From: an uncultured Selenomonadaceae bacterium
GTDB taxonomy: Bacteria; Bacillota; Negativicutes; Selenomonadales; Selenomonadaceae
DNA: 64,000 nt
Assembly: GCA_902778455.1 (NCBI GenBank)
Contig: CACYXR010000004.1
Span: 124,001 to 188,000, forward strand
Reading direction: 5' to 3'
The notes under the pieces were generated by a model. That model saw only the letters and a list, made by a program, of their open reading frames with translations, did no database searches and was not told where the DNA came from. Positions 17,789 to 46,505 of the stretch are shown in pieces. The first letter of the stretch is position 1. Each line of letters opens with the position of its first letter. A program made the translations under genes and the position numbers.

Positions 17789-18217
17789 TTATGCTCCCAC
17801 AGACTTCGCAACCTTGAGACGCACGATGGCGCGCTGGAGCGCAGCCTCGGCACGGCTGATGTCGATGTCCGTGTGTTTCAGCGGCGCGGAATTGAACTTC
17901 TTGATTCGTTCCTCGGCCCGCTGGTATGCTTTTTCCGCCCGCAGGACATCGATTTGAATCGGCGTCTCCGCACAGGACGCAAGCACCGTAATCTTGTTTT
18001 GCAGGACTTCCATGAAGCCGCCGCCGCACGCGATCAGCTCCTCACGGCCATCCTCGTGTTTCACGCGCATGGCGCAGGGGATGATGCTGGCGATCATCGG
18101 CAGATGGTTCGGCATGACGCCGATCTCGCCATCCTCCGCCTTGACGACGAGCATGTGGATGTCCGCCTGATAGACCACCGCGTCCGGGGAAACGACCTCC
18201 AGCTTGATCGTCGGCAT
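17789..18217 (-). CDS. atpC: ATP synthase F1 subunit epsilon
   Basis: A 142-residue central-stalk subunit. The N-terminal beta domain holds LEVVSPD, VKAEDGEIGVMPNHLPM and MRVKHEDGREEL; the C-terminal two-helix domain is Ala/Arg-rich (RAEKAYQRAEERI). The epsilon subunit couples rotation and can inhibit ATP hydrolysis. It is the last gene of the operon, 3 bases after atpD, with GGAGG in the end of atpD. A decayed relative of this gene lies at 4785-4889. Confidence 0.97.
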   Translation of the reverse strand: MPTIKLEVVSPDAVVYQADIHMLVVKAEDGEIGVMPNHLPMIASIIPCAMRVKHEDGREELIACGGGFMEVLQNKITVLASCAETPIQIDVLRAEKAYQRAEERIKKFNSAPLKHTDIDISRAEAALQRAIVRLKVAKSVGA

Positions 18218-18220
18218 AGG

Positions 18221-19645
<1,425 letters not shown>

Positions 19646-19666: not shown

Positions 19667-20878
19667 TTACTTCAATGCTTCCGCACCGCCCACGATCTCG
19701 GTGATCTCGCGGGTGATGTTCGCCTGACGTACCTTGTTGTAGAGCAGATCCAGCTTGCGCGTCAGCTCCTGCGCGTTGTCCGTCGCGCTCGACATTGCCG
19801 TCATGCGGGACGAAAGCTCGCTGGCCGCCGCCTGTAGCTGCGCCGCGTAAATCATCGTAACCAAATACTGCGGCAGCAGCGCGTTAAGCACGTCGTCCGC
19901 GTTCGGTATGAAGATGAACGGCTCTTCCTTGAATTCCTCCAGCGGCGTATCGTACGCGCTGAAATCAATGCTGTCCGTTTCTTCGTTTGGCAGCTCCGGC
20001 ATATCCGGGAGCGGCGGCAACGGGCCAAACCGCTCTTCCGCCTCTTTTGCTGCCTGGGCTTCCTTCGCTTTCGCCGCTTCCTCCGCGGCTGCTTCTGCCG
20101 CGGCCTCCGCGGCGGCTTTTTCCGCAGCCTCGTTCTTCGCGCGCTCCGCTTCGGCAGCCTCTTTCGCTTCCATCGCTTCGATCATTTCGTCGTAGCTCTG
20201 CGGCCCCGGCTGAGGCAGCTTCGCAAGCGCCGCCGCCTTCAAATGCGCGATGAACGCGCCCGCCTTGTCCAGTCTCGTCAGCTCGGCTTCCTCCGCCTCG
20301 CCGGTGATGCCCTCGAAAGGCAGGAGCTGGAACTTCTCCGGCACATTGACCATCGACGACACAAACCGCGCATAAATAATATGCACGGCGCTGTATTCGC
20401 CGGTTTCATAGCGCGTGGTCAGCTCCGCCGCGATTTGCTTCGCGATCTCGAAAGTGGGCCGCTCGCTGATGCCGAGATATTCCTTTACGATATGATAGCC
20501 CCGGTTGCGGAAATGTTCCTCGGTCTTTCGGCCGATGACGACAAGATCGGCTTTTTCCTTGTCGGGAATATGCCGAACCGCTTCCTTAAAAATATTCGAG
20601 GAATAGGCGCCCGCAAGACCTTTGTCTGCCGCGACGATCAGGAAAAGCTCCTTTTCCGCCGCGTCATAGGTCTCGAGAAGCGGGTGCTTGAAATCGGTGA
20701 CATTGGACGCGACGTTTTCCACGACCTCCGCCATCTTATCCGCATAGGGCTTGTTTGCGACAGCCGCCATCTGTGCGCGCCTGAGGCGCGCAGCCGCGAC
20801 CATTTTCATCGCCTTGGTGATCTGCTGGATGCTCTTTACGCTGCGTATTCTGCGGCGTATATCTTGCAAACTCGCCAT
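19667..20878 (-). CDS. atpG: ATP synthase F1 subunit gamma with large insertion
   Basis: A 403-residue central shaft where the family norm is about 285-300. The N-terminal helix (LQDIRRRIRSVKSIQQITKA) and C-terminal helix (SSATDNAQELTRKLDLLYNK) that form the rotor coiled coil are intact. Between LLPFEGI (about 185-191) and FIFIPNADDVLNALLPQYL (321-339) lie about 128 residues, where other bacteria have about 20. The extra part has a helical lead-in (202-220), a run almost purely of Ala, Glu and Lys (230-283, likely a long helix), and a Pro-rich acidic link (LPPLPDMPELPNEE). The frame is uninterrupted. It is probably a domain projecting from the globular part of gamma. Confidence 0.95.
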   Translation of the reverse strand: MASLQDIRRRIRSVKSIQQITKAMKMVAAARLRRAQMAAVANKPYADKMAEVVENVASNVTDFKHPLLETYDAAEKELFLIVAADKGLAGAYSSNIFKEAVRHIPDKEKADLVVIGRKTEEHFRNRGYHIVKEYLGISERPTFEIAKQIAAELTTRYETGEYSAVHIIYARFVSSMVNVPEKFQLLPFEGITGEAEEAELTRLDKAGAFIAHLKAAALAKLPQPGPQSYDEMIEAMEAKEAAEAERAKNEAAEKAAAEAAAEAAAEEAAKAKEAQAAKEAEERFGPLPPLPDMPELPNEETDSIDFSAYDTPLEEFKEEPFIFIPNADDVLNALLPQYLVTMIYAAQLQAAASELSSRMTAMSSATDNAQELTRKLDLLYNKVRQANITREITEIVGGAEALK

Positions 20879-20890
20879 TCAATCACCTCA

Positions 20891-22408
20891 TCACGCCATT
20901 TTGTAAGGAACGGTCTCCTTGAATTCTTCGATAGCCTGTCCGAGCGCGGCTTCCAGATTGTCATCCAGCTTCTGCTGCTCGGCAATCTTCTGCCCGATCT
21001 CCGGGTGGCTCTGCCGCATGAATTTCAGGAAATCATTCTGGAACGTGACGACCTTGTCCACGGGAATGTCCGCGAGATAGCCGCGAACCGCCGTGAAGAT
21101 GACCATGACCTGCTCCTGGACGACGAGCGGCGAATACTGGGTCTGCTTCAGCGTCTCCGTCATGCGCGCGCCGCGATCGAGCTGATCCTTCGTCGCCTTA
21201 TCAAGATCGGAGCCGAACTGCGCGAACGCCGCCAGCTCGCGATACTGCGCCAAATCCAAGCGCAGCGTACCGGCGACCTGTTTCATCGCCTTGATCTGCG
21301 CGCTGCCGCCGACACGGGATACCGAAAGGCCGACGTTGACCGCCGGACGGATTCCGGAATAGAACATATCGGTTTCCAGCATAATCTGGCCGTCTGTGAT
21401 CGAGATAACGTTCGTCGGAATGTAGGCGCCGACGTCGCCTGCCTGCGTCTCGATAATCGGAAGCGCGGTAATCGAGCCTGCACCGAGTTCATCGGACAGC
21501 TTCGCGGCGCGCTCCAGGAGACGCGAATGGAGATAGAATACGTCGCCCGGATACGCCTCGCGTCCGGGAGGACGACGGAGAAGCAGCGACATGGCGCGGT
21601 ACGCCGCCGCGTGCTTCGTGAGGTCGTCATAAATGCAAAGGCAGTGTCCGCCCTTCCGCATGAAATATTCCGCCATCGCGACGCCGGCATAGGGCGCCAT
21701 GTACTGGAGCGGCGAGGAATCCGACGCCGTCGCTGCGACAACGATCGAATACGCCATAGCCCCGGTGTCTTCCAGCGTCTTGACCACGCGGGCCACCGTA
21801 GACGCTTTCTGACCGATAGCGACATAAATGCAGATACAGTTCTGCCCCTTCTGATTTATCATCGTGTCGACGGCAATTGCCGTCTTGCCCGTGCCGCGGT
21901 CGCCGATAATCAATTCGCGCTGGCCGCGCCCAATGGGAACAAGTGCGTCGATAGCCTTGATACCCGTCTGGAGCGGCTCGTGAACCGACTTTCTGTCCGC
22001 GATGCCCGGCGCCGGACTTTCGATTTTCCGGTATTCCGTTGTTTCAATCGGTCCCTTGCCGTCGATAGGACGTCCGAGAGCGTCCACGACGCGCCCGATC
22101 ATCGCCTCGCCGACCGGCACCTGCAAGATGCGCCCTGTGCGCTTGACCGTGTCACCTTCCATGATCTCGTTCTCGCGGCCGAGAACGACGGCGCCCACGT
22201 TGTCCTGCTCCAGGTTCAGCACCAGTCCGAAAATATCATTTCCGAAATCGAGCAGCTCGCCGGCCATTGCTTTTTGCAGGCCATGAATATGAGCGATGCC
22301 GTCACCGATTTCGATAACAGTCCCCACCTCGTCAATCTCAAGATCCACTTCGTAGTTCTTGATCTGTTCTTTGATGATGGCTGTTATTTCTTCGGGATTC
22401 ATTTTCAT
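20891..22408 (-). CDS. atpA: ATP synthase F1 subunit alpha
   Basis: A 505-residue non-catalytic nucleotide-binding subunit. Walker A is GDRGTGKTA, and the segment [20 protein letters not shown] and the terminal [14 protein letters not shown] are standard. The first ATG (22408) has GAGGTGA 11 bases upstream; a second ATG follows one codon later. The gene sits between atpH and atpG with short spacers, as in most Firmicutes. Nothing unusual was seen. Confidence 0.97.
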
Positions 22409-22430: not shown

Positions 22431-22970
22431 CTAATCCGCCAAAAGCTGTGCTTCGAGTGCCTTCATGCGGCTTATGAGACTGCCGTCGATCAGCCGGTCG
22501 CCCATGCGAACCACCGCGCCGCCGAGCAGCTTCTCGTCCAAATGCTTCCGCAGCTTGATTGTCTTTCCCGTCAGCTCCCCGAGCTTTGCCTTGAGCCTGT
22601 CGCCGAGACTGTCGGACAGCTCCCTGGCCGTCGTGACATCCGCGACGAGAATGCCCTGCGCCTCGTTCGAGAAATTCTCATACTGGCGCACAATCTCCCC
22701 AAGGAGCGCTCCCCGCTGCTTGTCCAAGAGAAGGCGCAAGAAATTCATCACCATTGGGGAAAGTTCCCCGCCGAAAATCTTCTGCACCGCTTCCTGCTTC
22801 GCCTGCCGCGGGATCATCGGGCTTTCCAGGAACGCTTTGAGCTCCGGCGTGGCGTCCATTGCCTCGTCCAGCGCCTTGAGCTCCGCCCCGTACTCGACTA
22901 GCTTTCCTTCCTCTTGGGCGAGGAGGAACATCGCTTTTGAATACTTTGTGGCAAGCTGTAGATTCAGCAT
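22431..22970 (-). CDS. atpH: ATP synthase subunit delta
   Basis: A 179-residue peripheral-stalk subunit that ties F1 to the b subunits. The N-terminal six-helix domain begins LQLATKYSKAMFLLAQEEGK; the C-terminal part has GILVADVTTARELSDSL and LGGAVVRMGDRLIDGSL, typical of OSCP/delta. It overlaps the end of atpF by 7 bases, so the two are probably translationally coupled. Confidence 0.95.
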   Translation of the reverse strand: MLNLQLATKYSKAMFLLAQEEGKLVEYGAELKALDEAMDATPELKAFLESPMIPRQAKQEAVQKIFGGELSPMVMNFLRLLLDKQRGALLGEIVRQYENFSNEAQGILVADVTTARELSDSLGDRLKAKLGELTGKTIKLRKHLDEKLLGGAVVRMGDRLIDGSLISRMKALEAQLLAD

Positions 22971-23467
22971 GACAGATCACCCAGCTTTTCTTTGCTGAGA
23001 CTGTCGATGAAGTCGCCGACGAGCGCCTCATTGGCGGCGTCGTCCATGTTGCGGCCCATCAGCTTCGTGGCAGCCGCCAGCGAAAGCGCGACCATCTGCC
23101 CTTTCATTTTCTTCGCGGCCTCTTCGCGCTCCGCCTGGAGCTGCGCCTTTGCCGCGGCTTTCATCTGCTCGATCTCCTGCTGCGTTTCCTCGACGCGGGC
23201 ACGGTGCTCCGCCTCGCTGCGCTGCGTCGCGGAGTCGGTAATCTCCTGCGCGCGCTTCCTCGCATCGGAGAGCTTTTGCTCGTACTCCTTCTTCATCTCG
23301 GCCGCCTGCGCGCGGTCCTCGTCGGCCTGACGGATATTGTTCTGGATCTTGTCCGTCCGGTCATGGAGAACCTGAAGCAGAGGGCCCCATGCGAATTTCT
23401 TCAGCACGAGAAGGAGGACCAAGAAGTTGATAATCTGTATGAATAATGTTGAGTTGACATCTACCAT
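22964..23467 (-). CDS. atpF: ATP synthase Fo subunit b
   Basis: A 167-residue peripheral stalk. One N-terminal membrane helix (FIQIINFLVLLLVLKKFAWG) is followed by a long charged coiled coil (about residues 35-150). ATG 23467 is chosen over the upstream frame to 23512 because GGGAGGA lies 7 bases before it and the product then has the usual length. It is followed by atpH with an overlap. Confidence 0.95.
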   Translation of the reverse strand: MVDVNSTLFIQIINFLVLLLVLKKFAWGPLLQVLHDRTDKIQNNIRQADEDRAQAAEMKKEYEQKLSDARKRAQEITDSATQRSEAEHRARVEETQQEIEQMKAAAKAQLQAEREEAAKKMKGQMVALSLAAATKLMGRNMDDAANEALVGDFIDSLSKEKLGDLSC

Positions 23468-23548
23468 TCGCGGATCCTCCCTTCCGGCGTCTTTCGCACG
23501 AAAAGACGACAACCTGAAACAGCTGCCGCTTCCCGCCTAAGCCGCCAA

Positions 23549-23800
23549 TTACGCGATGAACGGATTCGCGAAGATGAGGATCAGGACAACGACGATAGCG
23601 ATAATAGGAATGGACTCAACAAGACCGCAGGATACGAGAGCGTTCGTGAACAGAGCATCCTTGACTTCCGGCTGGCGAACCGTGCCGTCCATCAAACGCA
23701 TCAGGACGCGGGAGTCACCATAAACAGCCATGATGATCGAAGTCATCGTGATGATAAGGATAACGATCAGGGACATGATAACGGGAGAAATAGTAGCCAT
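23549..23800 (-). CDS. atpE: ATP synthase Fo subunit c, unusual ion site and TM1
   Basis: An 83-residue rotor-ring subunit. The loop RQPE (42-45) and TM2 with ion-binding Glu62 followed by Ser63 (GLVESIPI) and the ending FANPF identify it. TM1 is atypical. The GxGxGxG packing motif is absent, replaced by bulky residues (SIIMAVYGDSRVLMRLMDG). Asp29 stands exactly 33 residues before Glu62, the spacing of Gln32 and Glu65 in Na+-binding c rings, and Glu62-Ser63 matches the Na+ signature. A double-carboxylate, probably Na+-type, site is inferred, like that known from Fusobacterium nucleatum. AGGAGG lies upstream. Confidence 0.93.
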   Translation of the reverse strand: MATISPVIMSLIVILIITMTSIIMAVYGDSRVLMRLMDGTVRQPEVKDALFTNALVSCGLVESIPIIAIVVVLILIFANPFIA

Positions 23801-23899
23801 GAGAAAAAAACCTCCTAATAATAAATAAATATTTTTTACGGCAAATTCTCACAGCGCGGGAAAGCCCCGCACCGGAACCGTTGCCACGGCTTACAAAAA

Positions 23900-24580
23900 T
23901 TACTCGTGATGATGCTCCTGCGCCGCCGGCGCGATATACACCAGCGAAAGCGTCGTGAAGATGTACGCCTGGATAATGCCGACCGCAAGGCTGAAGATAA
24001 CCCAGACTACATGCGGCGCCCAGTTCGCATACCAAGGAGCGAGATTCAGGATAATGATGATCAGCACCTCGCCCGCCAGGATGTTTCCGAAAAGACGGAA
24101 AGCCAGCGACGCGGGCCGTGCAAGCTCCTCAATGAGATGAATCAAGATGAAGGGAGCAAACGGCTCAAGGAAGTGCTTGAAATAGCCGATGCCGTTCCTC
24201 GCCACGCCGATGCCGTGATGAATCAGCATGGACATCGTGATTGCAAGGCCCAGCGTCGTATTCAAATCGTTTGTCGGCGACTCCATCGCCGGGAAAAGGC
24301 CCAGCCAGTTCGCGATCACCAGATACACGAACAATGTGAGGAAGATATGGGTCAGGGAACGCCCCGTCGGCCCAATCATCGTATTGATTTTATCCTCCCA
24401 CAGCTCGGCTATGGCCTCGATTGCGTTCTGCCACCCCGTGGGAACCTCCTTCAGGTTTCGCGATGCGAGAATCGCAATCAGAATGACGATGGCCATCGTG
24501 ATATAGTTCATGATGAGCGTCTCTTCATTGATGAGATAGCCGGCAAACTCCACGACTTCGCGATGACCGATTTTTTCCAT
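23900..24580 (-). CDS. atpB: ATP synthase Fo subunit a
   Basis: A 226-residue stator with about five to six membrane helices. The essential arginine is in LAFRLFGNILAGE, and TM5 has VVWVIFSLAVGIIQAYIF. It forms the ion half-channels against the c ring. The C-terminus ends in a His-rich EHHHE. GGGGAGG lies 6 bases before the ATG. Any Na+ coupling suggested by the c subunit would need matching residues here, which sequence reading alone cannot settle. Confidence 0.96.
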   Translation of the reverse strand: MEKIGHREVVEFAGYLINEETLIMNYITMAIVILIAILASRNLKEVPTGWQNAIEAIAELWEDKINTMIGPTGRSLTHIFLTLFVYLVIANWLGLFPAMESPTNDLNTTLGLAITMSMLIHHGIGVARNGIGYFKHFLEPFAPFILIHLIEELARPASLAFRLFGNILAGEVLIIIILNLAPWYANWAPHVVWVIFSLAVGIIQAYIFTTLSLVYIAPAAQEHHHE

Positions 24581-24613: not shown

Positions 24614-25012
24614 CTACGAAACCGCCTCCTCGCGGTTCTTCTTGATACGGGCCGCGATCAGGCAAGCGAACGCCGTCGCGAGAAACAGGAGATACGCCGC
24701 AATCGCCACCAGAAAAAACGGTTTTGAAACCTGCGCCGCAAGCCCCATGATCAGGCAAAGCGAACCCATGCGAATGAACAGCCCGTTCTGGAGCTGCGAG
24801 GCCGCTTTCTTCTCGTCGAAATGCCCGTCTTCCATGCGATTCGTCAACGTCCAGCAGAAAATGCCGCCCGCCAGATAGCCGACGAAAAGCCCGCCGATAA
24901 GCAGCCCCTTCCCCAAAAGGAGAAAGACCAGCGCACCCGCAAGCGTGCATCCCGCAAGAGCCTTCAGCGTCCAAACGCCGCCCCTGCCGTAGATTGATAA
25001 GAATTTTTCCAT
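24614..25012 (-). CDS. atpI: ATP synthase-associated AtpI-like membrane protein
   Basis: A 132-residue protein with four hydrophobic segments (ALAGCTLAGALVFLLLG; LLIGGLFVGYLAGGIFCW; LFIRMGSLCLIMGLAAQ; FLVAIAAYLLFLATAFACLI). It is first in the atp operon, the usual place of AtpI, which helps c-ring assembly or cation supply. ATG 25012 (MEKFLSIYG) has GAGGTGG just upstream; ATG 25033 is a weaker alternative. Sequence similarity within AtpI is low, so the name rests on topology and position. Confidence 0.75.
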   Translation of the reverse strand: MEKFLSIYGRGGVWTLKALAGCTLAGALVFLLLGKGLLIGGLFVGYLAGGIFCWTLTNRMEDGHFDEKKAASQLQNGLFIRMGSLCLIMGLAAQVSKPFFLVAIAAYLLFLATAFACLIAARIKKNREEAVS

Positions 25013-25069
25013 ATTCCACCTCGACGAAGTCATTCCATGCCCCCCGCCCGACGAAATATTTTCCGCCCT

Positions 25070-25099
25070 ATTATACTCCCAAGCATAAAAGCTTTGCAA
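25070..25099 (-). promoter_or_regulatory. Promoter of the atp operon
   Basis: On the minus strand TTGCAA (25099-25094), an 18-base spacer and a perfect TATAAT (25075-25070) lie about 58 bases before the atpI start. Confidence 0.75.
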
Positions 25100-25286: not shown

Positions 25287-28220
25287 CTATCCTTGTTTCT
25301 TTTCGCGCTCAATGAACGATTCAAATACGTCCGGCGGCACCGGGCGGGAGAAATAATAGCCCTGCACCAGGTCGCAGCCCGCGTTTTTCAGCATCGCCAT
25401 CTGATTTTCCGTTTCCACGCCCTCCGCGATCACGAGCATTTTCAGATTCTCGGCGATATCGAGGATCAGCTCCACCAGGCGGAAGTCCTGCTCGCTGTGC
25501 TCGATGTTCAGTATGAAGCCCCGGTCCATCTTCAGCACGTCCACCGGCATCGAAGAAAGCATATTCAGTGAGGAATAGCCGGAGCCGAAGTCGTCCATTT
25601 CGATTTCGTAGCCTTTGCTCCGCAGCCGTTCCATGACCTTCATCAGCTCGTCCGCATTGTCCGTGCAGGCGGACTCCGTCACCTCCAGCTTCAGGTCCTT
25701 GCGGTCCAGTCCGTTGCTTTCCACCAGCCCGTCGAGGATTTCCTCCAGCTGCGGGTCGAACATATCCACCCGGGACAAATTGATGGAAACCGGTATGGTA
25801 ACGCCGTATTTTTCCTTCCATTCGGCAATCTGCCGGGCAGCCTCAGCCCAGACATATTTGTCGACGAGGCTGATCTGCCCGTTTCCCTCGAACAGCGGGA
25901 TAAAATCGTTGGGCGGGATCAGGCCCAGCTCCGGATGCTGCCACCGGATCAGAGCCTCCGCGCTGGCCAGCCTCGGCGGGTCGCACTGGACGTTGTACTT
26001 GGGCTGATAATAGACCTTGAATTCCCGCTGCTCCACCGCCCGCCGCAGGTCGTTCAGCAGGCGCTGGCTGTAGTTTTCGCGGGAGCGGATTTCCTCATTG
26101 TAGATCATCAGATGCTTGTTGCCGCCCCGCACCATGTTGCAGGCCGACCACGCGCGCTCGAAGGCCTGGTCAGAGCCCAGCCCCTCCTGCCATGGCATGA
26201 CGCCCATGCGCAGGCGTATGCTGACGCTCCGCGACAGCTCGTTCAGCCGGTTCTGGAATTCCGCCAGCAGCGCCGGATAATCTTCCACATGCTTGCAGAA
26301 AATGTCGAACCTGTCCGCTTCGATACGGCCGGCGATGCCGATATTCCCCTCCAGGAACGTCTTGATTTCCTCGGCGAGGGAGCAAAGCACCATGTCGCCG
26401 TACTCGCGTCCGTTCAACTCGTTGACGAGATGGAACTGCTCGATATTCAGGACGATGGCGTCCGTCTTCAATCGTGGATAATCGCGGTTGAAGCGTCTCG
26501 CGTATTCGTAGAAAAAGCCCCGGCTGAACAGCCCGGTCAGGTCGTCGTTTTCCGTCACGGAAATGAGCTGCTGCCTGTCTTTCGCTTTTTTCCGGGCTTT
26601 CGCGCTGTACAGCGACAGGGAAAGCAGGAGCGTGGCGATAGTGGCGGCGACGGCGACGAACGGGACGAAATTGTCCTTTACGAAATCCGCGAAGCTGACC
26701 TTCTTCTCCGCGTAGGAGTGAGAAGCCAGCGACGAGTACACCTGCGTTTCCGGCACGAGATTGTTGAGCTTGTTGAGGATGGAGTAAAGCAGGGCGTCGT
26801 CCCGGCGCAGGGCGAAGGAGAAATGTATGTCCTCCCCGGTGGAAAGCGGCGCCAGATTGTATTTGGCGATTTGGTCGACAAGGCTGTTGAGTCTGTAAAG
26901 GGAAATCAGGCAGCAGTCCGCCTCGCCGGAGGCCACTGCCCGGAGCCGGTCCTCCCGTTTGTCGCAGAGCGTCACTTTCCATTCCGGGAAAAACTTCTTC
27001 ACGAAGTTCTCATGGTAATGGTTGCCCTTCACATACGCGACGCTCTCGATTTCCTGCAGGGAATATTTCTTGCGGTTTTCTCTCCGCACCACCGCGAACA
27101 TTTCCGAATGCATGGGCGGCGTCGATACCAGAACGTCCTCTTTCTCGCCGTCATAATCAGAAAAACTGACCGGGAACAGGCAGTCGATCTCCCCGTTTTT
27201 CAGTGCCTTCATCGCGGATTCCATGTCAGGGAACGCAATCGGATCAAAAACCAGGTTCGCGTTTTTCACGCCGGAGGCGGCAATTTTCAGGTAATCCTTC
27301 AGGGCGCCTGTCAGTATCCCCGTTTGCTCGTCCTTCCCGCAGTAAGGGAGGTAGTCGGCCCGGTAGCCCACCCGAACGACGCCGTGGCGCGCGAGCCATT
27401 CGCTTTCGGCGGGCGTGAGGTACGCGCCGAGGGCATTACTGTAAAAATACTTTTTGTTCATCTGCTGGTTGTAATACCGGTTTTCATCCTGGATCCGGTT
27501 CATGGCAGCATCCAGTTCCTGCAGCAGATCGGGGCGGTTCCGGCTCACCGCAAAGAAAAACGGAGAGGAGCCGACGCTGCAAATGGGAATGGGCCTGTCC
27601 TCGCCGACGCCGTTCTTGACGATGCTCGTGCCCACATAAATATCCAGCTCGCCCCGGTTCAGCTTTTGCAGCGAATCCTTTTCGCCGCCCGTCAGATCCA
27701 CGATTTCCGTCGAGATGCCGTATTTTTCCGCCCATGCGGCATAGAAATCCCGCTGCACGCTGCCCCGGTTTATGCCCACCCGCTTCCCGTTGAAGGAATC
27801 GAAATTGTCCAGACTGATTTGCGTATTCCGATTGGAAATATAAATATAATAATCTTCCTCGCCCATGGGCAGGGCGGAAAACAGCATATTCCCCGCCCGC
27901 TCCTCCGTATAGGAAACGTCGCTCAAAAGGTCGATCTCGCCCCGCTGGAGCATCTGCAAAAGCTCCGGCCAGCCCGCGTTTACATATTCATACTCCCAGC
28001 CGGTGTAGGCTGCAATCTTCTGTTGGTACTCGTAGGCAAAGCCGGAACGCCCGCCGAAGGAATCCGTGATATTGAACGGCGATTCGTACCACCCCACCCG
28101 CACGGTCTTTTTCCCGGAGGAAAACGCAAGCGCAGGAACAAGGAATACCAACAGCAGCAAAAGACAAAGCCGAAATGCGATCGTTTTTACGTTATTTGCA
28201 ACGGAAGGCGGTTTTTCCAT
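25287..28220 (-). CDS. EAL-domain c-di-GMP phosphodiesterase with tandem periplasmic sensor domains
   Basis: A 977-residue membrane sensor. The signal/anchor segment is residues 15-35. Two SBP_bac_3-type periplasmic domains follow (about 38-265 starting VRVGWYESPF, and 280-510 starting VRVGYRADYLPY), then a membrane helix (about 525-545). The GGDEF domain (about 565-715) is degenerate, with EADRF where GGDEF should be. The EAL domain (about 730-970) keeps EALIRW, MDDFGSGYSSL and EGVET. It should therefore degrade, not make, c-di-GMP in response to an extracellular amino-acid-like ligand (inference). The ATG has AGGTG upstream. It stands alone. Confidence 0.9.
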   Translation of the reverse strand: MEKPPSVANNVKTIAFRLCLLLLLVFLVPALAFSSGKKTVRVGWYESPFNITDSFGGRSGFAYEYQQKIAAYTGWEYEYVNAGWPELLQMLQRGEIDLLSDVSYTEERAGNMLFSALPMGEEDYYIYISNRNTQISLDNFDSFNGKRVGINRGSVQRDFYAAWAEKYGISTEIVDLTGGEKDSLQKLNRGELDIYVGTSIVKNGVGEDRPIPICSVGSSPFFFAVSRNRPDLLQELDAAMNRIQDENRYYNQQMNKKYFYSNALGAYLTPAESEWLARHGVVRVGYRADYLPYCGKDEQTGILTGALKDYLKIAASGVKNANLVFDPIAFPDMESAMKALKNGEIDCLFPVSFSDYDGEKEDVLVSTPPMHSEMFAVVRRENRKKYSLQEIESVAYVKGNHYHENFVKKFFPEWKVTLCDKREDRLRAVASGEADCCLISLYRLNSLVDQIAKYNLAPLSTGEDIHFSFALRRDDALLYSILNKLNNLVPETQVYSSLASHSYAEKKVSFADFVKDNFVPFVAVAATIATLLLSLSLYSAKARKKAKDRQQLISVTENDDLTGLFSRGFFYEYARRFNRDYPRLKTDAIVLNIEQFHLVNELNGREYGDMVLCSLAEEIKTFLEGNIGIAGRIEADRFDIFCKHVEDYPALLAEFQNRLNELSRSVSIRLRMGVMPWQEGLGSDQAFERAWSACNMVRGGNKHLMIYNEEIRSRENYSQRLLNDLRRAVEQREFKVYYQPKYNVQCDPPRLASAEALIRWQHPELGLIPPNDFIPLFEGNGQISLVDKYVWAEAARQIAEWKEKYGVTIPVSINLSRVDMFDPQLEEILDGLVESNGLDRKDLKLEVTESACTDNADELMKVMERLRSKGYEIEMDDFGSGYSSLNMLSSMPVDVLKMDRGFILNIEHSEQDFRLVELILDIAENLKMLVIAEGVETENQMAMLKNAGCDLVQGYYFSRPVPPDVFESFIEREKKQG

Positions 28221-45026: not shown

Positions 45027-46505
45027 TTGTCTCAGAATATTTCCATCGTTGCCGCATTCATCATCTACCTTTCCGTGATGATGTTCATCGGCATTTATTT
45101 TTACCGTCGGACACAAAATATGTCCGACTACATCCTCGGCAGCCGGAAGCTCGGCGCGTGGGTCATCTCCATGAGCGCCGAGGCCTCCGACATGAGCGGC
45201 TGGATGCTGATGGGCCTGCCGGGCTACGCGTATATCGCCGGGCTGAACGCGGGCTGGATCGCCCTCGGTCTCGGGCTCGGCACATGGGCGAACTGGAAGC
45301 TTGTCGCCGCACGGCTCCGGAAATACACCGAGCTGGCGAACAACTCGCTGACGCTGCCGGACTTCCTGCTCAACCGCTATCAGGACAAAAGCAATCTCTT
45401 ACGGATTGTCCCTGCCGTTTTCATTTTGATTTTCTTCATTATATACACCTCATCCAGCTTCGTCGCCAGCGGCAAGCTGTTCGAGACAGTCTTCGGACTT
45501 CCCTATGTCTGGGCGCTGGTCCTCGGCGGCGCTGTCGTCATTTTCTACACCAGCGTCGGTGGTTTCCTCGCCGTGGTCTGGACCGACTTCATCCAGGGCA
45601 TCATGATGTTCTGCGCGATCTTCCTCGTTCCCGTCATGGCGGCCTACGCTCTCGGCGGAATCTCCGCCACGGAAAGCGCCATCCTCGCCTCCAACCCGAA
45701 CTTTTTCGCGCCGCTGACGAAGCCCGACGGCTCCGCCATGACATTCGTCGAGCTGATTTCCCTGCTGGGCTGGGGACTCGGCTACTTCGGCCAGCCGCAT
45801 ATCCTCGTCCGGTTCATGGCGATCCGTTCCCTCGGCGCCCTTCGCCATGCTACGCGGATCGCGATGACATGGGTCGTCGTTTCCCTGGCCGCCGCCGTGC
45901 TTGTAGGCATGGTCGGACGTCCGTTCCTCGCCAATGAATTGACGGGCGCAGGCGCCGAAAAAGTTTTCCTGGTCATGACGCATGAACTGTTCTCCCCGTT
46001 CTTCGCGGGCATCATTCTTTCCGCCGTGCTGGCGGCCATCATGAGCACCGTTTCTTCCCAGCTTCTCGTCGCATCCTCCGCCTTCGCACAGGATCTTTAC
46101 CACACCATGCTGCGGAAGGACGCAAGCGAAAACGAACTGGTCTGGGTCAACCGGATTTCCACCTTTGCGATCGCGGCCATCGCCATGGTGCTGGCGCTGA
46201 ATCCCGACAGCTTTATCCTCGACATCGTTGCTTACGCATGGGCAGGCTTCGGCGCGGCCTTCGGCCCGGCGATTCTCGCGTCGCTGTTCTGGCGACGCGC
46301 GACACGGAACGGTGTCCTCGCCGGCATCGTCGTCGGCGGCCTCACTGTCCTGATCTGGAAACAACTCGCGCTGTTCGGCCTCTACGAGATTATCCCCGGC
46401 TTCTTCCTGTCCGCCCTCGCGATTTACATCGTAAGCAGAACGGACGCGCCGCCCTCGGAGGAAATCACCGCCGTGTTCGACGAAGTGGAAAAAAGCGGAA
46501 TATAA
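45027..46505 (+). CDS. putP: Sodium/proline symporter
   Basis: A 492-residue SSS-family transporter with about 13 membrane spans. SAEASDMSGWML places the Na+-site Asp at residue 55, the same number as in E. coli PutP, and GQPHILVRFMAIRS and STVSSQLLVASSAFAQDLY are family motifs. It imports proline with Na+, which links to a sodium economy along with the ATP synthase c subunit. Translation starts at TTG 45027, supported by AGGAGGG 8 bases upstream. Confidence 0.93.
   Translation: MSQNISIVAAFIIYLSVMMFIGIYFYRRTQNMSDYILGSRKLGAWVISMSAEASDMSGWMLMGLPGYAYIAGLNAGWIALGLGLGTWANWKLVAARLRKYTELANNSLTLPDFLLNRYQDKSNLLRIVPAVFILIFFIIYTSSSFVASGKLFETVFGLPYVWALVLGGAVVIFYTSVGGFLAVVWTDFIQGIMMFCAIFLVPVMAAYALGGISATESAILASNPNFFAPLTKPDGSAMTFVELISLLGWGLGYFGQPHILVRFMAIRSLGALRHATRIAMTWVVVSLAAAVLVGMVGRPFLANELTGAGAEKVFLVMTHELFSPFFAGIILSAVLAAIMSTVSSQLLVASSAFAQDLYHTMLRKDASENELVWVNRISTFAIAAIAMVLALNPDSFILDIVAYAWAGFGAAFGPAILASLFWRRATRNGVLAGIVVGGLTVLIWKQLALFGLYEIIPGFFLSALAIYIVSRTDAPPSEEITAVFDEVEKSGI

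What the first reader, a model, noticed from the sequence alone, without database searches (positions are those of the whole stretch)
23549..23800. ATP synthase c subunit with two carboxylates and no glycine motif
Asp29 and Glu62 are exactly 33 residues apart, like Gln32 and Glu65 of Na+-type c subunits, and Glu62 is followed by Ser as in Na+ sites. A two-carboxylate Na+ motif is known from the Fusobacterium nucleatum c ring (Glu/Glu); here the TM1 partner would be Asp. In addition, the GxGxGxG packing motif of TM1 is replaced by bulky residues, which should change ring packing and perhaps stoichiometry. PutP in the same window fits a sodium economy.
Basis: partly seen in the sequence, partly recalled or inferred. 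Interest (0 to 1): 0.78.

Follow-up and report, generated by a model that had tools for sequence, protein, structure and literature searches.

The report
Rebuilt ATP synthase rotor in Schwartzia
The paired acidic residues noticed in this ATP synthase rotor protein are ordinary for this group of bacteria and do not show that it runs on sodium, but its first membrane helix really has lost the glycine pattern that packs such rotors tightly, in one small bacterial lineage that also enlarged the rotor's shaft protein.

Summary
The ORF at 23549-23800 (-) is a real atpE (F-ATP synthase subunit c) in a complete atp operon and the only PF00137 gene found in the genome. Asp29 and Glu62 do sit at the Gln32/Glu65 ion-site positions of Ilyobacter. 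That pair is unremarkable: Asp is there in 31 of 33 other Selenomonadaceae c subunits, is common across the class, and the same Asp/Glu pair is in solved mycobacterial (H+) rings. The sodium reading is weak: Ser63 is present, but the Thr67 and Tyr70 equivalents are Ile, and the Negativicute Sporomusa ovata has a fuller Na+ motif yet a Na+-indifferent ATPase.

The loss of the glycine motif is real and is the interesting part. GxGxGxGxG has become I-M/A-V-G-S within a conserved 'YGDS[RK]' segment. It is confined to five genera (14 of 189 genomes of the order) forming one clade; other Negativicutes lost glycines independently. The same clade's gamma subunit gained up to ~120 residues in the interval where chloroplast gamma has its regulatory insert. 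Most likely this is a functional ring with looser packing, probably wider or with more subunits; ring size and coupling ion were not shown here.

The parts
23549..23800 (-). atpE, F-ATP synthase subunit c, 83 aa
   Evidence: ORF; PF00137 34.4 bits; only such gene in the genome; conserved in relatives
23811..23816 (-). AGGAGG ribosome-binding site of atpE
   Evidence: read directly
23711..23737 (-). TM1 glycine-motif region, residues 22-30 (IIMAVYGDS): motif positions I22, M24, V26, G28, S30
   Evidence: alignment on the RQP loop and to solved c subunits
23714..23716 (-). Asp29 codon, TM1 ion-site position (Gln32 of Ilyobacter)
23612..23617 (-). Glu62 and Ser63 codons, TM2 ion site (Glu65, Ser66 of Ilyobacter)
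23900..24580 (-). atpB, subunit a; stator Arg162; clade-specific R155 and A157 close to it
   Evidence: PF00119; alignment
22964..23512 (-). atpF, subunit b
   Evidence: PF00430
22431..22970 (-). atpH, subunit delta
   Evidence: PF00213
20891..22408 (-). atpA, subunit alpha (used for the tree)
   Evidence: ORF; homologues in the relatives and tree
19667..20878 (-). atpG, subunit gamma, 403 aa, long
   Evidence: PF00231; lengths in relatives
19919..20311 (-). gamma residues 190-320: about 130 residues where ordinary gamma has about 11
   Evidence: gap between the two aligned stretches of solved gamma subunits; relatives
18221..19633 (-). atpD, subunit beta
   Evidence: ORF; homologues in the relatives
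17789..18217 (-). atpC, subunit epsilon
   Evidence: ORF; homologues in the relatives

Best explanation
This is the working c subunit of the cell's only detected rotary ATP synthase, in a lineage (Schwartzia and four neighbouring genera) whose TM1 was rebuilt, probably once. Ion coupling is of the usual kind: E62 on TM2 binds and releases the transported ion at subunit a (stator Arg162), while D29 most likely stays protonated and hydrogen-bonds E62, as concluded for other two-carboxylate rings. The coupling ion is somewhat more likely H+ (or mixed) than Na+, about 60:40. The new feature is mechanical: with I22, M/A24 and V26 where relatives have small residues, the inner helices should not pack as closely on the periplasmic side of the site, while G28 and S30 keep them close at the site itself. 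By the known relation between residue size and ring size, the ring should be wider and probably have more subunits (13 or more), allowing ATP synthesis at a lower ion-motive force. Shown: the gene, the alignment, the clade, the conservation. Inferred: protonation of D29, coupling ion, ring size, physiological benefit.
For: Real, conserved, constrained gene in a complete operon, the only PF00137 gene. Register fixed by solved c subunits. TM1 diverged out of proportion: 29% identity to canonical family members, which share 80% with one another, against 54% and 83% for TM2. One clade of five genera: 14 of 189 genomes of the order score 95 bits or more, the rest 70 or less; alpha tree support 99/96. 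An alanine version of the motif goes with a wide c13 ring (PMC2914638); smaller residues go with smaller rings (PMC7003800). The TM1 carboxylate is protonated in two-carboxylate rings (PMC3692424).
Against: No structure or ring count. The AlphaFold hairpin is weak (pLDDT 64) and its fold search gave no significant match. Known cases of glycine replacement involve Ala, Ser and similar small changes, so extrapolating to Ile/Val/Met is uncertain: bulk on the helix could be taken up by tilt without changing the number of subunits. The coupling ion cannot be read from the sequence.
Confidence: 0.55

Rival explanations
1. One reading: a Na+-driven ring with an Asp/Glu two-carboxylate Na+ site, fed by Na+-pumping decarboxylases.
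For: D29, E62 and S63 match Gln/Glu32, Glu65 and Ser66. The genome has a Na+-transporting decarboxylase beta subunit with a gamma subunit beside it and three SSF symporters.
Against: Thr67 and Tyr70 equivalents are Ile; Asp/Glu also occurs in mycobacterial H+ rings; Sporomusa ovata has a fuller motif and a Na+-independent ATPase; the decarboxylase beta subunit is in 62 of 81 relatives, so it does not mark this c subunit.
Confidence: 0.35
2. Relaxed packing without functional consequence: the glycine motif drifted, compensating changes keep the ring at an ordinary size.
For: Glycine-poor c subunits arose several times in Negativicutes (G067, G069, G088, G105, G113, G114, G119), so the motif is dispensable there. 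G28 and S30 remain small.
Against: The new TM1 is itself strongly conserved (YGDS[RK] in all members; invariant Y27, G28, D29, S30 and R31 in Schwartzia) and dN is well below dS, which is not drift.
Confidence: 0.25
3. The c and gamma changes are one adaptation: the long gamma loop next to a remodelled ring acts as a clutch that limits ATP hydrolysis, in the way of the phototroph gamma insert.
For: Within the clade gamma length rises with bulk at the motif: 301 and 308 in G032 and G029, 380 in G022, 382-421 in Schwartzia and G038. The extra residues lie in the interval of the chloroplast insert. G069, an independent glycine-poor lineage, has a 340-aa gamma.
Against: Mostly one clade, so the correlation (Spearman 0.67) is not independent evidence; G067, G088, G105, G113 and G114 are glycine-poor with gamma of 284-293 aa. 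The gamma model is unusable (pLDDT 44). The window's insert has no cysteine.
Confidence: 0.2

Closest known systems
Mycobacterial F-ATP synthase c ring (M. phlei 4v1f, M. smegmatis 7jg5), c9, H+
   Same: Asp in TM1 and Glu in TM2 at the same positions
   Different: Keeps GAGIGDG; Ala follows Glu65 where Ser63 stands here
Fusobacterium nucleatum c11 ring (3zk1), Na+, two carboxylates
   Same: Two carboxylates 33 residues apart, then Ser (PMC3692424)
   Different: Glu not Asp in TM1; has Thr67 and Tyr70 (Ile here); glycine motif present
Bacillus pseudofirmus OF4 c13 ring (3zo6, 2x2v), AxAxAxA motif, H+
   Same: Glycine motif replaced; TM2 similar (EAVPIIAIV there, ESIPIIAIV here)
   Different: Alanines there, Ile/Met/Val here; no TM1 carboxylate reported at its site
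Burkholderia pseudomallei N-type ATPase c17 ring
   Same: Two-carboxylate site reported (Glu30, Glu61; PMC5376962)
   Different: N-type operon and a second enzyme of its cell; here an ordinary F operon with delta, and the only ring
Canonical c subunits of other Selenomonadaceae
   Same: Asp/Glu pair, loop and TM2
   Different: Keep GAGIGDG; their TM1 shares only 29% with the window's

Membership tests
F-type ATP synthase subunit c | Match to PF00137 above the curated cut-off | tested here: met
   34.4 bits against 24; also above TIGR01260 (45.6 against 43.95)
F-type ATP synthase subunit c | Two helices joined by an RQP loop, TM2 carboxylate | tested here: met
   R42-Q43-P44 and E62; helices 6-37 and 44-78 in a weak model
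F-type ATP synthase subunit c | Lies in an atp operon with a, b, delta | tested here: met
F-type ATP synthase subunit c | GxGxGxG motif in TM1 (usual, not universal) | tested here: not met
   I-M-V-G-S at the five positions
Na+-type c ring (Ilyobacter, Fusobacterium) | Gln or Glu at 32, Glu at 65, Ser or Thr at 66 | tested here: met
   D29 (acidic equivalent), E62, S63
Na+-type c ring (Ilyobacter, Fusobacterium) | Thr67 (water) and Tyr70 | tested here: not met
   Ile64 and Ile67 (positions from PMC3692424)
Na+-type c ring (Ilyobacter, Fusobacterium) | Na+-stimulated ATPase, Na+ protection against DCCD | not testable with these tools
   needs the enzyme
Two-carboxylate c ring | Second carboxylate in TM1 at the ion site | tested here: met
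   D29 at position 32
N-type ATPase c subunit | N-type operon (no delta) and the sequence features of the N-like c genes seen in the class (GQGKAIAS, AQQPDE) | tested here: not met
   delta present; the N-like c genes L007 and L071 differ throughout
Enlarged c ring (13 or more) | Subunit number | not testable with these tools
   no ring structure; the monomer model is weak

The most novel reading that the evidence does not exclude
Schwartzia and its neighbours run an F-ATP synthase whose nearly glycine-free inner helices give an unusually large ring (13 or more subunits, possibly beyond the known maximum of 17), with a gamma subunit enlarged to match, tuned to make ATP from the small ion gradient of decarboxylation-based fermentation.
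Probability: 0.2. Interest if true: 0.7.

Novelty: new variant of a known kind. Interest (0 to 1): 0.42.

Why it matters
How the c sequence sets ring size, and so the ion cost of an ATP, is still not fully understood. Here is a lineage in which the packing motif was almost wholly replaced by Ile, Val and Met, with graded relatives (SACG in G032, AMVG in G029, VAVG in G022, IMVG/IAVG in Schwartzia) and canonical relatives in the same family: a natural series for testing the packing rule. It also shows that an Asp/Glu pair followed by Ser should not be read as a Na+ signature in Negativicutes.

Tried and rejected
Sequencing error, frameshift or pseudogene: rejected; nearly the same protein in independent assemblies, dN well below dS. 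A second c gene or V-type ring in the genome: none found. Import of the whole operon from far away: not supported; the alpha subunit places the clade inside the family. A general rule that glycine loss goes with a long gamma: not supported outside this clade plus G069. AlphaFold of c and gamma gave weak models (pLDDT 64 and 44; only close relatives were allowed in the alignments) and the fold search no significant match. Papers on Schwartzia and ATP synthase: none in the library. The mycobacterial c-ring paper is not held, so its H+ coupling rests on PMC3692424 and PMC8106487.

Full report
WHAT IS THERE. The ORF at 23549-23800 on the minus strand encodes 83 residues, MATISPVIMSLIVILIITMTSIIMAVYGDSRVLMRLMDGTVRQPEVKDALFTNALVSCGLVESIPIIAIVVVLILIFANPFIA, with an AGGAGG ribosome site. 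It belongs to PF00137 and lies between atpB and atpF in a complete operon: a 23900-24580, c, b 22964-23512, delta 22431-22970, alpha 20891-22408, gamma 19667-20878, beta 18221-19633, epsilon 17789-18217. It is the only PF00137 match in the 2.6 Mb assembly, so no second F- or V-type ring was found. The close relatives are MAGs; three are titled Schwartzia sp., all from rumens. The genus is therefore inferred from neighbours, not from a label on this genome.

THE CARBOXYLATE PAIR. Matches to solved c subunits hold a constant offset of 3 (query 28-82 to 31-85 in Fusobacterium 3zk1 and Ilyobacter 1yce; 22-81 to 25-84 in M. phlei 4v1f), so D29 is at position 32 and E62 at 65. I extracted the c subunits of the relatives. 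Asp is there in 31 of 33 other Selenomonadaceae c genes and in 20 of 38 from other families of the class, with Asn in 14.

WHAT THE PAIR MEANS. In Fusobacterium Na+ is held by Glu32, Glu65, Ser66, the Val63 carbonyl and a water that leans on Thr67, with Tyr70 locking Glu65 (PMC3692424). The authors conclude that the TM1 carboxylate is constitutively protonated and contributes to selectivity like Gln or Asn, and expect the same in H+-driven two-carboxylate synthases such as those of M. tuberculosis and S. pneumoniae. Here Ser66 is met (S63), but Thr67 and Tyr70 are Ile64 and Ile67. In the same class, Sporomusa ovata carries the Q...ET/S motif and yet its ATPase was not stimulated by NaCl (PMC9430772). 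The genome does hold Na+-transporting decarboxylase beta and gamma subunits, has no NQR2/RnfD/RnfE match and has a PutP-type symporter at 45027-46505. But the decarboxylase beta subunit is found in 62 of 81 relatives, so it does not mark this c subunit. I put H+ or mixed coupling slightly ahead of Na+; sequence cannot settle it.

THE GLYCINE MOTIF. At the five motif positions canonical relatives read A-G-G-G-G or close to it; the window reads I-M-V-G-S. TM1 has only 29% identity to 26 canonical family members, which share 80% with one another; TM2 has 54% against 83%. A profile of the Schwartzia c, run over the 189 held genomes of the order, splits cleanly: 14 genomes in five genera score 95 bits or more, everything else 70 or less. 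Three genera are intermediate (G032 SACG-S, G029 AMVG-S, G022 VAVG-S) and all share YGDS[RK]. In the alpha-subunit tree the group is one clade (99/96) inside the family, so the change was probably made once; G067 and G069 lost glycines separately. Glycine-poor versions made mostly of Ala and Ser also occur in G088, G105, G113, G114 and G119. Glycine-poor rings are thus uncommon but recurrent in Negativicutes; bulky replacements like these are rarer (G067, partly G114). dN is 0.005-0.08 against dS 0.17-0.66, so the protein is under constraint.

LIKELY EFFECT. An alanine version of the motif goes with a wide c13 ring (PMC2914638); smaller residues allow closer packing and smaller rings, and larger rings work at lower ion-motive force (PMC7003800); the known range is c8 to c17 (PMC8106487). 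By that rule I22, M24 and V26 should loosen the inner helices, while G28 and S30 keep them close at the ion site. By ideal helix geometry Y27 and R31 face roughly away from D29, towards the ring's lumen (inference, not modelled). A larger ring would suit a fermenter with a small gradient (inference). The c model was weak and its fold search gave no significant match.

CHANGES ELSEWHERE IN THE ENZYME. Subunit a of the clade has fixed differences near the stator Arg162, K155R and I157A among others. Gamma is 382-421 aa in Schwartzia and G038, 380 in G022, 308 and 301 in G029 and G032, against about 285. The extra residues lie between residues 189 and 321, the gap between two stretches that align to ordinary gamma subunits; the chloroplast match ends its first stretch at the same query residue. 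Phototrophs combine a large ring with a gamma insert that limits hydrolysis (PMC8106487), a suggestive parallel only. Outside this clade the link holds in G069 but not in G067, G088, G105, G113 or G114, so I do not claim that one change requires the other.

VERDICT. An ordinary ion-site pair; an unsupported sodium claim; and a real, lineage-specific remodelling of TM1 for which I found no description (no paper on Schwartzia and ATP synthase in the library). It is a new variant of a known kind.

Noticed in passing
19919-20311 (-), gamma residues 190-320: Ala/Glu-rich then Pro-rich insertion of about 120 residues in the gamma subunit, shared by the clade with the remodelled c subunit and varying in length between species (382-421 aa in all).
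   Followed up: partly
L049 (G067, another Negativicute family): A separately derived c subunit with TM1 'ATKNNREVAVK': no motif glycines, Asn at the TM1 ion position and extra charged residues beside it.
   Followed up: partly
L083 (G021), L023 (G015) and L031 (G043): Long gamma subunits (358 and 335 aa) in relatives with canonical or nearly canonical c subunits; in G021 the loop itself is of ordinary length, so its extra residues lie elsewhere.
   Followed up: no
L131, L132, L133 (G105): One Negativicute genome with three PF00137 genes at separate places, two of them weak matches; what the extra ones do was not examined.
   Followed up: no
25287-28220 (-): A 977-aa protein that by eye looks like two periplasmic solute-binding domains followed by GGDEF and EAL domains; not searched.
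   Followed up: no
24614-25099 (-): A 161-aa membrane protein at the head of the atp operon, in the place of AtpI, with no Pfam or NCBIfam match.
   Followed up: no
   Followed up: yes
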